Assembly: GCF_002159945.1 (NCBI RefSeq)
Contig: NZ_NFJQ01000008.1
Location: forward strand, 124,001-188,000
Length of the DNA stretch: 64,000 nucleotides
Source: Cloacibacillus sp. An23
GTDB taxonomy: Bacteria; Synergistota; Synergistia; Synergistales; Synergistaceae
Reading direction: 5' to 3'
Below the pieces are notes generated by a model, which worked only from the letters and a program-made list of their open reading frames with translations, did no database searches and was not told where the DNA came from. Positions 56,129-63,748 of this stretch are shown here, piece after piece. A program made the position numbers and the translations under genes. Positions within the stretch are counted from its first letter, which is position 1; each line of letters begins with the position of its first letter.

Positions 56129-56225
56129 GGAGGTGCGTTTCAGCTGGTGCTGGGCCCGGACTTCAAATCCGGTGAGAGTGGTTAGAAGCTGCTCTGGTAG
56201 GTTCGATTCCTACACGCCTCCGCCA
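56129..56225 (+). tRNA. selC: tRNA-Sec(TCA)
   Basis: A 97-nt tRNA with the selenocysteine hallmarks: long acceptor arm (GGAGGTG/CGCCTCC), six-pair D stem (TTCAGC/GCTGGG), anticodon stem CCGGA/TCCGG with loop CTTCAAA (anticodon TCA), long extra arm, T stem GTAGG/CCTAC with TTCGATT loop, and an encoded GCCA end. It implies that the organism makes selenoproteins; selA, selB and selD are not in the window. Confidence 0.97.
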
Positions 56226-57089: not shown

Positions 57090-57212
57090 TCATGCTATTC
57101 TGAAACGTATAAGTGGCGAAAAAGGTGTACCTTTTTCGCCACCCAACATCGCTTTATAAAACGCGCCTAAATACATTAAACAACAGCCAAAAACATCGCT
57201 TGGCTTCTCCAT
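57090..57212 (-). CDS. possible small protein between palindromes
   Basis: A 40-residue frame starting MEKPSDVFGCCLMYLGAFYK. AAGGTG lies 9 nt before the ATG, and TTGACT with a TAATAA-like element lies upstream. It spans one copy of the 28-bp palindrome near its end. It has no recognised family, so it may be noise. Confidence 0.25.
   Translation of the reverse strand: MEKPSDVFGCCLMYLGAFYKAMLGGEKGTPFSPLIRFRIA
57114..57141. repeat. 28-bp palindromic element, copy 1
   Basis: TGGCGAAAAAGGT, two bases, ACCTTTTTCGCCA: perfect 13-bp arms (14 counting the outer G-C). About 180 bp before the helicase start. Confidence 0.85.
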
Positions 57213-57249
57213 ATTATTACAACACCTTCTGTAAAAGTCAATCGTGTAC

Positions 57250-57277
57250 TGGCGAAAAAGGTACGCATTATTCGCCA
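57250..57277. repeat. 28-bp palindromic element, copy 2
   Basis: Begins with the same 13 bases TGGCGAAAAAGGT as copy 1 and ends with the same TTCGCCA. The length is identical (28 bp) but the centre is diverged, leaving 7-bp outer arms. It lies about 45 bp before the helicase start, where it could act on its promoter or leader. Confidence 0.8.
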
Positions 57278-60160: not shown

Positions 60161-61327
60161 ATGAAGACAAAACCCGAAAAACGAATCCTACTATCATACC
60201 CGCACATGAGCGGAGACGAGCTGAGGCTCGTAAAAGACGCATTCGAATCCAACTGGATAGCGCCTCTCGGCCCGCATGTCGACGCATTTGAAAAAGAGAC
60301 CGCGGCATACGCCGGAGTAAAATCGGCGCTTGCACTCTCCAGCGGGAGCGCCGCTATACACCTCGGCCTCAGGTTGCTCAACGTGCAGGCCGGAGATATA
60401 GTCTTCTGCTCCACACTGACCTTCATAGCTTCGGTAGCTCCGGCTATGTACCAGAACGCCGTCCCCGTCTTCATCGACTCAGACGAAGAGACATGGAATA
60501 TGTCGCCCACAGCACTTCAGAAAGCCTTCGACGACGCTGAAAAAACAGGCAGAATGCCCAAATGCGTTATAGTCGCCGAACTCTACGGGCAGCCGCCCAA
60601 AATAGACGAGATACAAAAAATCTGCGCCAAATACAGCGTTCCTATACTCGAAGACTCCGCCGAAGCGTTGGGCGCCACATACGACGGCAAAAAATGCGGC
60701 TCCTTCGGCAAAGTAGGAGTCTACTCATACAACGGCAACAAAATAATAACCACATCAGGCGGAGGAATGCTCCTCTCCGACGACGAAGAATACATAGAAA
60801 AAGCCAGATTCTGGTCCACCCAGGCCAGAGACAAAGCGCCGTGGTACGAACACACCGAAATAGGCTACAACTACAGGATGAGCAACATCCTCGCCGCCAT
60901 AGGCAGAGGCCAGATGCTCCATCTTGAAGAACGCATAAACAGAAGAAGAGCCATATACAGCAAATACAAACAGGAACTTGAAAAAATCCCCGGCATAACC
61001 CTGATGCCCGAGACGCCGAAAGCCCGTTCCATCCAATGGCTCACAGCTATAACGATAGACAAAGAAATAACAGGCAAAACATTCATGGACGTGCTCAACT
61101 ACCTGAACGAACAGAACATAGAAACACGTCCCGTCTGGAAACCCATGCACCTCCAGCCGTACTTCAAGCAGATGAACGCTAAATACTTCACTCACGGAGA
61201 CGGAGAAAACGGCAGCGTATCAGACAGGCTCTTCAACACAGGTCTATGCCTGCCGTCGGCTTCCGCCATGATAGACGATGAGCAGGACTACGTGATTGAA
61301 GCGCTGAAAAGATATCTGTCGGCATAG
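60161..61327 (+). CDS. DegT/DnrJ/EryC1 (PglE-like) PLP aminotransferase
   Basis: Probably adds an amino group to a UDP-4-keto sugar in diaminosugar (bacillosamine-like) synthesis. The 388-residue protein has the PLP Lys in SYNGNKIITTSGGGML near residue 190, LEDSAEALGATYDGKK near 162 and the conserved ALSSGSAAIHLGL near 57. It heads an operon with PglC-, PIG-L-, LpxD- and PglD-like genes. The start is ATG 60161. The substrate is inferred from its neighbours. Confidence 0.92.
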   Translation: MKTKPEKRILLSYPHMSGDELRLVKDAFESNWIAPLGPHVDAFEKETAAYAGVKSALALSSGSAAIHLGLRLLNVQAGDIVFCSTLTFIASVAPAMYQNAVPVFIDSDEETWNMSPTALQKAFDDAEKTGRMPKCVIVAELYGQPPKIDEIQKICAKYSVPILEDSAEALGATYDGKKCGSFGKVGVYSYNGNKIITTSGGGMLLSDDEEYIEKARFWSTQARDKAPWYEHTEIGYNYRMSNILAAIGRGQMLHLEERINRRRAIYSKYKQELEKIPGITLMPETPKARSIQWLTAITIDKEITGKTFMDVLNYLNEQNIETRPVWKPMHLQPYFKQMNAKYFTHGDGENGSVSDRLFNTGLCLPSASAMIDDEQDYVIEALKRYLSA

Positions 61328-61380: not shown

Positions 61381-62130
61381 ATGAGACAGAAACACATACC
61401 TTACGGACCATACGAGAGATACCTCAAAAGGCCATTGGATATATTCCTGGCCCTTCTTACGATTGTACTCTTTTGGTGGCTCTATCTCATCATAGCTGTA
61501 TTAGTCCGCATAAACCTCGGCAGTCCTATCATCTTTACGCAGGAGCGCATCGGTAAAGACGAGAAAATATTCAGGATATATAAATTCCGGACGATGACCG
61601 ACGCTAAAGATAAAAACGGCAAGCTTCTGCCGGACGCGGAACGCATGACCAAACTCGGTAAATGGCTTAGAAGCACCAGCCTTGACGAGATCCTCCAGGC
61701 CTTCAACATCCTGGAAGGAACCTGTTCATGGATAGGCCCGCGCCCGCTCCTTGCTTCCTATCTGGATAAATTCAACGAAATCCAGAGACACCGTCACGAT
61801 GTCCGTCCAGGGCTTATAGGCTTCACAAAAATGGGCCGCCACGCCACTTCATGGGAAAAACAGTTCGAATGGGACGTCTGGTACGCCGGACATATCACGC
61901 TGTTTGAAGATATAAAAATCATATTCCGCGCAATCCCCAACGTCTTAAGCGGCTTCATTACTATCTCATCGCCTGACAGGGAAGCATTCACAGGCAGTGT
62001 TCATACCGGACAAACGATAGAATCCGGCTCTGCCGGCAGCGGCACTGACAACAACACTGCCGTCAGAGCGAAAAAGAACAGTGAAAAAGAAAAAGAACTT
62101 TACGCGGCAGCGCAGGGAGAACAGAGATGA
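61381..62130 (+). CDS. PglC-like sugar-phosphate transferase (monotopic phosphoglycosyl transferase)
   Basis: Transfers a sugar phosphate to a lipid carrier at the membrane, the first glycan step. The 249-residue protein has the re-entrant N-terminal hydrophobic helix (residues about 18-42), the KFRTM motif near residue 69, the catalytic dyad in TSLDEILQ near 103, and GPRPLL near 121. The C-terminal tail is Ser/Gly-rich and charged. It overlaps the next gene by 4 bp. Confidence 0.92.
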   Translation: MRQKHIPYGPYERYLKRPLDIFLALLTIVLFWWLYLIIAVLVRINLGSPIIFTQERIGKDEKIFRIYKFRTMTDAKDKNGKLLPDAERMTKLGKWLRSTSLDEILQAFNILEGTCSWIGPRPLLASYLDKFNEIQRHRHDVRPGLIGFTKMGRHATSWEKQFEWDVWYAGHITLFEDIKIIFRAIPNVLSGFITISSPDREAFTGSVHTGQTIESGSAGSGTDNNTAVRAKKNSEKEKELYAAAQGEQR

Positions 62131-62789
62131 ACGTCCTGATAATAGCTCCGCACCCGGATGACGAAATACTGGGATGCGGTGGAACAATCGCAAAACATAC
62201 GGCAGCGTGGAACCAGGTATACGTCTGCATCGTGACAAGAGGAAAACTTCCTCTATTCAACGACGAAGGTGTGAAAATTGTTAGGGAAGAATGTTCAGCT
62301 GCCCATAAATATTTAGGGGTAAAAGAAACCATCTTCCTTGACTTCCCCGCCGCCATGCTCGAAGAAGTCCCAAGGCACGAGCTCAACGACAGCCTCTGTA
62401 AAGTCGTACAGCGTATAAAGCCGGAAGAAGTGTATATCCCCCACAGGGGCGACATGCAGCTCGACCACAAGATGATAGTCGACGCCGCCATGGTTGCCCT
62501 GCGTCCCAAATACGAACACGTGGCAAAAAGGATATACGCTTATGAGACGTTGTCGGAGACAGGATGGGATATCCCTAACACCGTCAACGAATTCATTCCG
62601 ACGGTCTATAACGACATAAGCGGTTATTTGGATCAGAAATTACAGGCGATGCGGTTCTATCAGTCCCAGCTTGCGCCGTATCCAAATCCGAGATCAATTG
62701 AAAGCCTTGAAGCTCTTGCGAAATACAGAGGATCGACGGTCAACAAGAGAGCCGCGGAAGCCTTCTCTCTGATCCGTGAAATACGCTGA
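62127..62789 (+). CDS. PIG-L/LmbE-family deacetylase
   Basis: A 220-residue zinc hydrolase with AHPDDEILGCGG-like start (APHPDDEILGCGG, residues 7-19) and the HRGDMQLDH motif near residue 112. Such enzymes remove an N-acetyl group from an amino sugar. It lies between the PglC-like and LpxD-like genes, so it probably edits the surface glycan or its lipid-linked precursor. The exact substrate is unknown. Confidence 0.9.
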   Translation: MNVLIIAPHPDDEILGCGGTIAKHTAAWNQVYVCIVTRGKLPLFNDEGVKIVREECSAAHKYLGVKETIFLDFPAAMLEEVPRHELNDSLCKVVQRIKPEEVYIPHRGDMQLDHKMIVDAAMVALRPKYEHVAKRIYAYETLSETGWDIPNTVNEFIPTVYNDISGYLDQKLQAMRFYQSQLAPYPNPRSIESLEALAKYRGSTVNKRAAEAFSLIREIR

Positions 62790-62824: not shown

Positions 62825-63748
62825 ATGTTTAAACTGAGCGAGCTTATAGAATTTCTCAAAGAAAAACAGCTGCTTATAGGCGAAGTCAAGACAGACGGAG
62901 ATAAGGAAATAAAACGTTTCGCTTCCTTGCTGCATCCGTCAGCCGACGCGCTATGCTGGTCGCAGAAAACGCTTTCGCCGGACACCATTCCCAACGCGGC
63001 TGTGCTCCTCTGTCAGCCTGAGCAGGAACATGACCCTAACCTAGACACTGTAATGATTCACGTGCAGGATCCGAGACGGGTATTCGGGACCGTCGCCTAT
63101 CATTTCAACCGAAGGATAAGAAAAACGGGCATCTATGATAAAGCGGTGATAAGCCCGACAGCGGTCATAGGGGAGAACGTCTACATAGGCCCCTATACGG
63201 TAATAGAAGACGGATGCCGTATAGGCGACGGAACAATAATAGACGCCAACGTGACCATATACCACGACGTGACCATAGGCAAAAACTGCCATATATGGGC
63301 CGGAGCAGTAATCGGAGCTGACGGCCACGGTTATTTCCTCGATGACGGCAACCTCTGGCAGCATGTCGTACACATGGGAAACGTCGTCATCGGAGACAAC
63401 GTGGAAATAAAAGCCAACAGCTGCGTAGACCGTGGAGTGCTTGACGACACTACCATTGGAGACAATACGAAGATAGATAATCTGGTTCAGGTGGCTCATA
63501 ACGTAGTTATCGGGAAGAATACTTTTATCGCCGGAGGAACTCAAATAGGAGGAAGCTGCGTTGTCGGTGACAACTGCTGGCTTGGCTCTTCTTGCGTGAT
63601 AAAGAACGGGGCGAAAGTCGCAGACGAAGTACGCGTCTGCATCAACTCAGTAGTCGTCAGGGACATAAAACGTACCAACGCCACAGTCTACGGCGATCCC
63701 GCAAGATATATATTCCCGTACTACATGGGTAAAGAGAGCAAACTCTAA
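62825..63748 (+). CDS. LpxD-like hexapeptide-repeat acyltransferase
   Basis: A 307-residue protein. The N-terminal part (about 1-100) resembles the uridine-binding domain of LpxD. Residues about 110-290 form a left-handed beta helix of hexapeptide repeats (VIGENVYIGPYTVIEDGCRI and similar). The active-site GHGYFLDDGN and HNVVIG elements match LpxD. It is in a glycan cluster rather than with lpxA, lpxB or fabZ, so it may N-acylate a glycan sugar with a fatty or short acyl group. Confidence 0.85.
   Translation: MFKLSELIEFLKEKQLLIGEVKTDGDKEIKRFASLLHPSADALCWSQKTLSPDTIPNAAVLLCQPEQEHDPNLDTVMIHVQDPRRVFGTVAYHFNRRIRKTGIYDKAVISPTAVIGENVYIGPYTVIEDGCRIGDGTIIDANVTIYHDVTIGKNCHIWAGAVIGADGHGYFLDDGNLWQHVVHMGNVVIGDNVEIKANSCVDRGVLDDTTIGDNTKIDNLVQVAHNVVIGKNTFIAGGTQIGGSCVVGDNCWLGSSCVIKNGAKVADEVRVCINSVVVRDIKRTNATVYGDPARYIFPYYMGKESKL

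What the first reader, a model, noticed from the sequence alone, without database searches (positions are those of the whole stretch)
57114..57277. Two 28-bp palindromes of equal length in front of the helicase gene
Copies at 57114-57141 and 57250-57277 share the first 13 bases and the last 7 and have identical length. Copy 1 is a near-perfect palindrome. The second copy lies about 45 bp from the helicase start. They could be operators of a dimeric regulator, recombinase sites, or hairpins in the leader RNA.
Basis: seen in the sequence. Interest (0 to 1): 0.55.

Follow-up and report, generated by a model that had tools for sequence, protein, structure and literature searches.

The report
Invertible promoter before sugar-coat operon
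The two palindromes are most likely the cut-and-rejoin sites of a DNA flip switch: the piece between them carries a promoter that an enzyme can turn around, switching a cell-surface sugar operon on or off, and here it appears in the off position.

Summary
They form a 28-bp inverted pair (13-bp arms, central GT in copy 1, AC in copy 2) around a 108-bp spacer with one good promoter-like sequence, now pointing away from the helicase (OFF). The helicase heads a surface-glycan operon. The genome has nine such sites, three of them 43 bp before the three helicase copies. Near-identical spacers occur in both orientations at two helicase loci of relative G042 (91.8% identical when inverted), at two loci of a MAG labelled Selenomonadales (95.0%), and apparently within this genome (98.1%; contig joins unresolved). 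In four relatives a small serine recombinase gene lies within 50 bp of a site; the window's genome has one serine recombinase, a 73-78% homologue, unlinked. Its best NCBIfam profile is Mpi, the Bacteroides fragilis master invertase (below cut-off). In 52 family genomes, close helicase, close recombinase and site pair occur in the same six. Related helicases head glycan operons in Bacillota too (54 of 58 loci examined); 24 of 57 have a recombinase gene upstream. Best reading: promoter-inversion phase variation by an Mpi-like invertase acting in trans. A known kind of switch; the helicase-headed form looks like a new variant. No inversion was observed in reads.

The parts
57114..57141 (+). Site 1: 28-bp recombination site (arms of 13 bp, centre GT)
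   Evidence: 9 such places in the genome, reversed control 0
57142..57249 (.). 108-bp invertible segment (spacer)
   Evidence: near-identical spacers in both orientations at other loci and genomes
57213..57241 (-). Promoter-like sequence TTGACT-N17-AATAAT with extended -10, pointing away from the helicase: OFF state
   Evidence: 2 promoter-like sites in 401 bases, shuffles 0.7; comparable sequence in the relatives' spacers
57185..57205 (-). Short hairpin directly downstream of the promoter, in the stretch it would transcribe; role unknown
   Evidence: similar sequence in the G003 spacer, compared by eye
57250..57277 (+). Site 2: 28-bp recombination site (centre AC), inverted relative to site 1; also the site before the helicase copies on C18 and C23
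57321..59888 (+). Superfamily 2 helicase with repeated HA domains (PF03457, 5 stretches), first gene of the operon
   Evidence: three copies in the genome, all 43 bp after a site; model
60161..61327 (+). DegT/DnrJ/EryC1-type aminotransferase
61381..62130 (+). Bacterial sugar transferase (PF02397)
62127..62789 (+). PIG-L type deacetylase
62825..63748 (+). Hexapeptide-repeat acyltransferase

Best explanation
This is a phase-variation switch. A small Mpi-like serine recombinase, encoded elsewhere in the genome (contig C12), binds the two 28-bp sites, cuts at the central GT/AC dinucleotide and rejoins the DNA so that the 108-bp stretch between them is inverted. The stretch carries one promoter. 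In one orientation it reads into the helicase gene and the glycan genes behind it (ON); in the other, the one assembled here, it reads away (OFF). The same enzyme probably serves several further switches in this genome, so cells of one clone would show different surface glycans. Shown by sequence: the inverted site pair, the promoter-like sequence, near-identical spacers in both orientations at different loci, and the linkage of the recombinase gene in relatives. Inferred: that inversion happens in living cells, that this recombinase does it and cuts at the centre, that the promoter is active, and that the surface glycan changes.
For: Nine sites in the genome, reversed control none; each of the three helicase copies starts 43 bp after a site. 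Spacers near-identical but inverted: G042 C25/C34 91.8% against 50.0% direct, L129/L160 95.0% against 45.8%, G012/G013 68.3% against 44.8%, own C15 98.1% against 52.7%. Serine recombinase gene within 50 bp of a site in G012, G013, G045 and G042-C25. A single PF00239 protein in the window's genome, 73-78% identical to those of five relatives; best NCBIfam model Mpi. Recombinase loci across the phylum: 12 of 29 contain the site core, 0 of 29 shuffled sequences. Central dinucleotides complementary in 19 of 19 pairs listed. Close helicase, close recombinase and site pair in the same 6 of 52 family genomes.
Against: No read-level or experimental evidence of inversion. In the window's genome and in G003 the recombinase gene is not next to a site. 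The Mpi model score is far below its cut-off (58.6 against 272). The own-genome case (C15) depends on treating the C15 contig end as the outer side of a switch; flank genes found no homologue near switches of relatives to settle it. The 19 of 19 count is biased, since most pairs were picked with a GT/AC core. The promoter scan alone is weak (2 found, 0.7 expected). The genome also has 15 tyrosine-recombinase matches.
Confidence: 0.9

Rival explanations
1. The segment is inverted by a tyrosine recombinase (11-bp arms around a 6-bp overlap, as in Xer/dif sites) and not by the serine recombinase.
For: 28 bp can be read as 11+6+11; the genome has 15 tyrosine-recombinase matches; related helicases in Bacillota often have a tyrosine recombinase gene upstream (21 of the 24 linked cases).
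Against: 5 of 8 family site pairs (window, G003, G012, G013, G045) mismatch within the central 6 bp, none in the central 2. In four relatives the gene beside the sites is a serine recombinase. The bacillotal loci with tyrosine recombinases have other repeats.
Confidence: 0.05
2. The palindromes are operators of a dimeric regulator, or hairpins in the leader RNA of the helicase gene, with no DNA inversion.
For: Near-perfect palindrome close to a gene start; copy 2 would be transcribed and could fold.
Against: Does not explain the inverted spacers or the linked recombinase. The outer half of copy 2 departs from the palindrome at 3 of 13 positions. No Rfam family matches there.
Confidence: 0.03
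3. The repeats are the ends of a small mobile element scattered through the genome.
For: Many copies, at contig breaks; a mobile unit would also be found in both directions.
Against: In 19 pairs the sites lie 116-178 bp apart with complementary centres. All three helicase genes lie at the same 43-bp distance from a site. The 108-bp unit is too short to encode a transposase. The sites differ more in the outer than in the inner halves in 13 of 19 pairs (counted), as inversion would leave them.
Confidence: 0.02

Closest known systems
Mpi-controlled invertible promoters of Bacteroides fragilis polysaccharide loci
   Same: One serine recombinase, promoters flanked by inverted repeats, several loci served in trans, surface polysaccharide operons; [quoted passage not shown] Best NCBIfam model of the recombinase here is Mpi.
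   Different: Score far below the Mpi cut-off; different lineage; the first gene is a helicase with HA repeats (in Bacteroides the first genes are UpxY/UpxZ, recalled); in four relatives the recombinase gene sits at a switch.
Invertible element of the Akkermansia muciniphila cps1 capsule locus
   Same: Inverted repeats beside a capsule locus, ON and OFF orientation linked to capsule (PMC13343947, passages seen).
   Different: Repeat motif CGGATT..AATCCG; no recombinase and no helicase mentioned in that main text (word counts 0).
Hin/Gin-type DNA invertases and resolvases
   Same: Sequence relatives with solved structures are Sin, gamma-delta resolvase and DNA invertases; sites of 26-28 bp with a 2-bp centre (recalled).
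   Different: No enhancer or Fis-like factor was looked for; the regulated genes differ.
Megabase inversions of capsule clusters in Eggerthella lenta
   Same: Inverted repeats shared by distant capsule loci (PMC13174815, passages seen).
   Different: 16-bp repeat, very large inversions and no recombinase found beside the breakpoints; here the unit is a 108-bp segment.

Membership tests
Invertible promoter (inverton) | Two inverted repeats flanking a short segment | tested here: met
   13-bp arms, centres GT/AC, 108-bp spacer
Invertible promoter (inverton) | Segment contains a promoter | tested here: inconclusive
   Consensus match with extended -10, comparable in relatives' spacers; activity not tested
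Invertible promoter (inverton) | Both orientations of the same locus in one population | not testable with these tools
   No reads; both orientations seen only between loci and between species
Mpi-type serine recombinase system | Small serine recombinase with conserved catalytic residues | tested here: met
   PF00239 match; Arg8, Ser10, Asp67, Arg68 and Arg71 invariant in the five aligned enzymes; that these are the catalytic residues is recalled
Mpi-type serine recombinase system | NCBIfam Mpi equivalog cut-off | tested here: not met
   58.6 bits against 272; hence 'Mpi-like', not Mpi
Mpi-type serine recombinase system | Several switches served in trans by one enzyme | tested here: inconclusive
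   One serine recombinase and nine sites on six contigs; action not shown
Tyrosine recombinase (Xer-like) inversion site | Identical 6-bp overlap in both sites | tested here: not met
   5 of 8 family pairs mismatch within the central 6 bp
Leader RNA of a described family | Rfam match at the palindromes | tested here: not met
   Only two tRNA genes in the window

The most novel reading that the evidence does not exclude
The HA-repeat helicase is a dedicated partner of phase-variable glycan operons in more than one bacterial group: it has been coupled repeatedly with unrelated promoter-inversion machines (Mpi-like serine and several kinds of tyrosine recombinase) and acts on the leader or the elongating polymerase so that the long operon is read through, or so that other glycan loci stay silent; a helicase in the role that UpxY/UpxZ play in Bacteroides (recalled).
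Probability: 0.25. Interest if true: 0.78.

Novelty: new variant of a known kind. Interest (0 to 1): 0.6.

Why it matters
It brings a Bacteroides-style capsule switch into another lineage and names the likely enzyme, the site and the ON and OFF states, so that phase variation there can be tested with one PCR. The HA-repeat helicase is a ready marker for such operons: among the bacillotal loci examined, 54 of 58 have glycan genes within 3 kb behind it, and 21 of 50 have a recombinase gene in the 3 kb before it against 0 of 58 in the 3 kb behind it. Why a helicase should be the first gene of phase-variable glycan operons is an open and testable question.

Tried and rejected
Rfam: nothing at the palindromes, only a tRNA-Sec (56129-56221) and one other tRNA in the window. 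A first scan of named genomes with the helicase alone confirmed no relative; an alignment worked. Single weak site-like hits in G019, G022 (C126), G026, G039 and G046 have no convincing partner in the fetched flanks and were dropped; G022 has other switches. Comparing the flank genes of C15, C1, C5-end and G003-C217 with the fetched switch loci gave only self matches, so it did not settle which contig ends belong together. The fold search of the helicase model (mean pLDDT 81.6, pTM 0.49) listed RadD, SauUSI, a type ISP enzyme and XPB for the motor part and told nothing about the HA repeats. In one search the spacers of G042-C25 and C34 were printed in contig direction; both contigs run away from the helicase, so I turned the states round (C25 ON, C34 OFF), as the script does. 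Literature searches found no paper that describes this system or this helicase in invertible loci (listings of an open-access library only; Jiang et al. 2019 is not held).

Full report
WHAT IS THERE. The two 28-bp sequences are at the stated coordinates. Copy 1 is TGGCGAAAAAGGT-GT-ACCTTTTTCGCCA and copy 2 is TGGCGAAAAAGGT-AC-GCATTATTCGCCA. Copy 1 breaks the palindrome only at its two central bases, GT; copy 2 has AC there, which is GT on the other strand. The copies are therefore an inverted pair, 136 bp apart centre to centre. Their inner halves, facing the 108-bp spacer, are identical and their outer halves differ at 3 of 13 positions. In the window the exact pattern occurs only at these two places. 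In the genome (2.9 Mb, 31 contigs) a longer version with up to 3 mismatches marks nine places and its reversed control none. Two of the nine are the first 28 bases of contigs C18 and C23, one is the last 28 bases of C5, and two lie about 100 bases from the start of C1 and C15, which is what a repeat does to an assembly.

WHAT THE SITES FLANK. Three copies of the helicase gene exist (C8 = the window, C18, C23; the other two 80 and 88% identical to the window's), each starting 43 bp after a site; a fourth match, on C10, is only 26% identical and is not counted. Behind the window's copy lie a DegT-type aminotransferase, a sugar transferase, a PIG-L deacetylase and a hexapeptide acyltransferase. 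A further pair (C5:140073-140236), with the same 136-bp spacing, precedes a membrane-bound O-acyltransferase gene. The window's spacer holds one good sigma-70-like sequence, TTGACT-N17-AATAAT with an extended -10, on the minus strand at 57241-57213, pointing away from the helicase (the scan found 2 such sites in 401 bases against 0.7 in shuffles, so alone it is weak). A comparable sequence, TTGAC(A/T) followed by an A+T-rich extended -10, is seen in the spacers of G003, G012, G013, G042 and G045; in the C5:140 kb spacer the best match is weaker, 8 of 12.

BOTH ORIENTATIONS. In relative G042 two contigs run from a switch into a helicase start (ends printed); their spacers are 91.8% identical when one is inverted and 50.0% otherwise. 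In a MAG labelled Selenomonadales (CAMHCS01, loci L129 and L160) two helicase loci have spacers 95.0% identical when one is inverted. Between species, G012 is inverted relative to G013 (68.3% against 44.8%). In the window's own genome, read from the contig flank inward, the C1 spacer matches the window in the same direction (94 of 97) and the C15 spacer matches its reverse complement (102 of 104) (all). This last case assumes that C1 and C15 are both the outer, non-operon sides of switches; I assume it because their first genes read toward the site, but their partners lie beyond contig ends and flank comparison did not settle it. By promoter direction, ON: G012 and G042-C25; OFF: window, G003, G013, G045 and G042-C34 (with the two G042 directions corrected). 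L160, L157 and L173 look ON and L129 OFF, judged by eye from the sequence printed.

THE ENZYME. In G012, G013, G045 and G042-C25 a serine recombinase gene ends within 50 bp of one of the sites. The window's genome has one PF00239 match, on C12 (67174-67779, minus), with no site core in the fetched flanks. It is 73-78% identical to the four linked enzymes and the unlinked one of G003. Its best NCBIfam model is Mpi, 58.6 bits against a cut-off of 272. Its relatives of solved structure are Sin (filed as Tn552 DNA-invertase bin3), gamma-delta resolvase and DNA invertases. Across 185 genomes of the phylum 53 have some match at E<=0.001. Of the 29 recombinase loci examined, 12 contain the core AAAAGGTGTACCTTTT with up to 3 mismatches and 0 of 29 shuffled sequences do; 11 of the 12 have both sites of a pair. 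Of the 17 without it, eight (L232-L239) are the more distant enzymes, two (L218, L224) have an inverted pair with another core, and the window genome's own gene and that of G003 are among the rest. An exact two-site pattern occurs in 5 of 185 genomes and its control in none; those five have a recombinase relative of at least 50% identity. In the 52 family genomes the close helicase (62-89% identity to the window's in relatives; in G042 a 63-residue fragment at a contig end, 70%), the close recombinase (73% or more) and a site pair are each present in G000, G003, G012, G013, G042 and G045. Three other genomes have only 25-29% helicase matches and five others only single weak site-like hits, which I dropped. 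The central dinucleotides are complementary in 19 of 19 pairs listed, including AT/AT in G003 and AA/TT in L222; most pairs were found with a GT/AC core, so this count is biased. In the 8 family pairs before a helicase or other operon the two central columns never mismatch, while 13 of the other 26 columns do at least once, and 5 of 8 pairs mismatch within the central 6 bp. That fits the 2-bp overlap of serine recombinases (recalled) better than a 6-bp overlap. An AT centre, as in G003, has no polarity, so direction there would have to be set otherwise; this is unexplained.

WIDER PICTURE. An alignment of the helicases finds 277 related loci in public genome records, of which the best 80 were returned; by title most are Clostridia, a few Selenomonadales. 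Of 58 with 3 kb of downstream sequence, 54 have a glycan-gene match on the same strand there; in the 3 kb upstream it is 1 of 50. Of 70 with at least 250 bp upstream, 17 have an inverted-repeat pair (20-bp arms, up to 3 mismatches) and 0 of 210 shuffles do; 53 of 70 have none. The repeats are of several kinds: seven of the 80 loci carry at least one copy within 2 mismatches of the core AAAAGGTGTACCTTTT (L129, L157, L160, L173, L180, L184, L195), two more (L153, L165) only at 3 mismatches. Of 57 loci whose helicase starts beyond base 1500, 24 have a recombinase gene within 3 kb upstream, 3 serine and 21 tyrosine type. With full 3-kb stretches it is 21 of 50 upstream against 0 of 58 downstream; four of the 21 (L155, L177, L189, L196) supplied query sequences, so 17 of 46 is the fairer figure. 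The helicase has thus been joined to more than one kind of recombinase. One further helicase copy each in G012 and G013 has no inverted repeats within 900 bp upstream but a TTGACA-type promoter-like sequence, read by eye, and a divergent Xre-like regulator gene (name by sequence resemblance, not searched).

MECHANISM. The best account is promoter inversion by the Mpi-like enzyme at the 2-bp centre; in the OFF state the operon gets no promoter from this segment. Some spacers are so alike between loci that exchange between loci, or large inversions as reported for Eggerthella lenta (PMC13174815, passages), is conceivable; nothing here tests it. What the helicase does is unknown. Its motor part resembles RadD and XPB; a role in transcription of the operon is a guess.

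KNOWN OR NEW. Promoter inversion of polysaccharide loci by one master serine recombinase is known for Bacteroides fragilis (PMC4747536, passages) and capsule inversion for Akkermansia (PMC13343947, passages). An inverton survey of a defined gut community (PMC11892184; word search of the main text only) contains none of the words helicase, Synergist, Dorea or Cloacibacillus. In the searches listed under Tried and rejected I found no paper on this helicase in invertible loci; they cover open-access papers only. I file it as a new variant of a known kind. From recall I would guess the family to be Synergistaceae; no call shows it.

Noticed in passing
L155, L161, L167, L168, L130, L134, L177, L182, L185, L190, L196 (upstream of the helicase): Related helicases in Bacillota often have a tyrosine recombinase gene directly upstream, several with their own, different inverted repeats.
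   Followed up: partly
L019:3074-3237 (G000:C5:140073-140236): A complete switch with a different spacer stands before a membrane-bound O-acyltransferase gene and not before a helicase.
   Followed up: partly
L208:1388-3323 (G023:C226): Recombinase (47% identical) and site pair directly upstream of a gene for a protein with an S-layer homology domain; promoter direction not examined.
   Followed up: no
L083:7472-7637 (G003:C114): The site pair has AT/AT centres, a dinucleotide without polarity; how inversion would be kept apart from deletion is unclear.
   Followed up: no
L086:4893-7487 and L088:4861-7425: Second helicase copies in G012 and G013 lack the switch and have a divergent Xre-like regulator gene upstream.
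   Followed up: partly
L022:299-934 (contig C1): A reading frame with integrase N-terminal domains lies beside the C1 switch, reading toward it.
   Followed up: no
L023:2540-3025 (contig C18): The sugar-transferase frame behind the C18 helicase is shorter than the one on C23 (161 against 207 codons) and loses the resemblance near its end, possibly a broken copy.
   Followed up: no
56129-56221: Selenocysteine tRNA gene about 0.9 kb upstream of the switch; the stretch in between holds no convincing gene.
   Followed up: no
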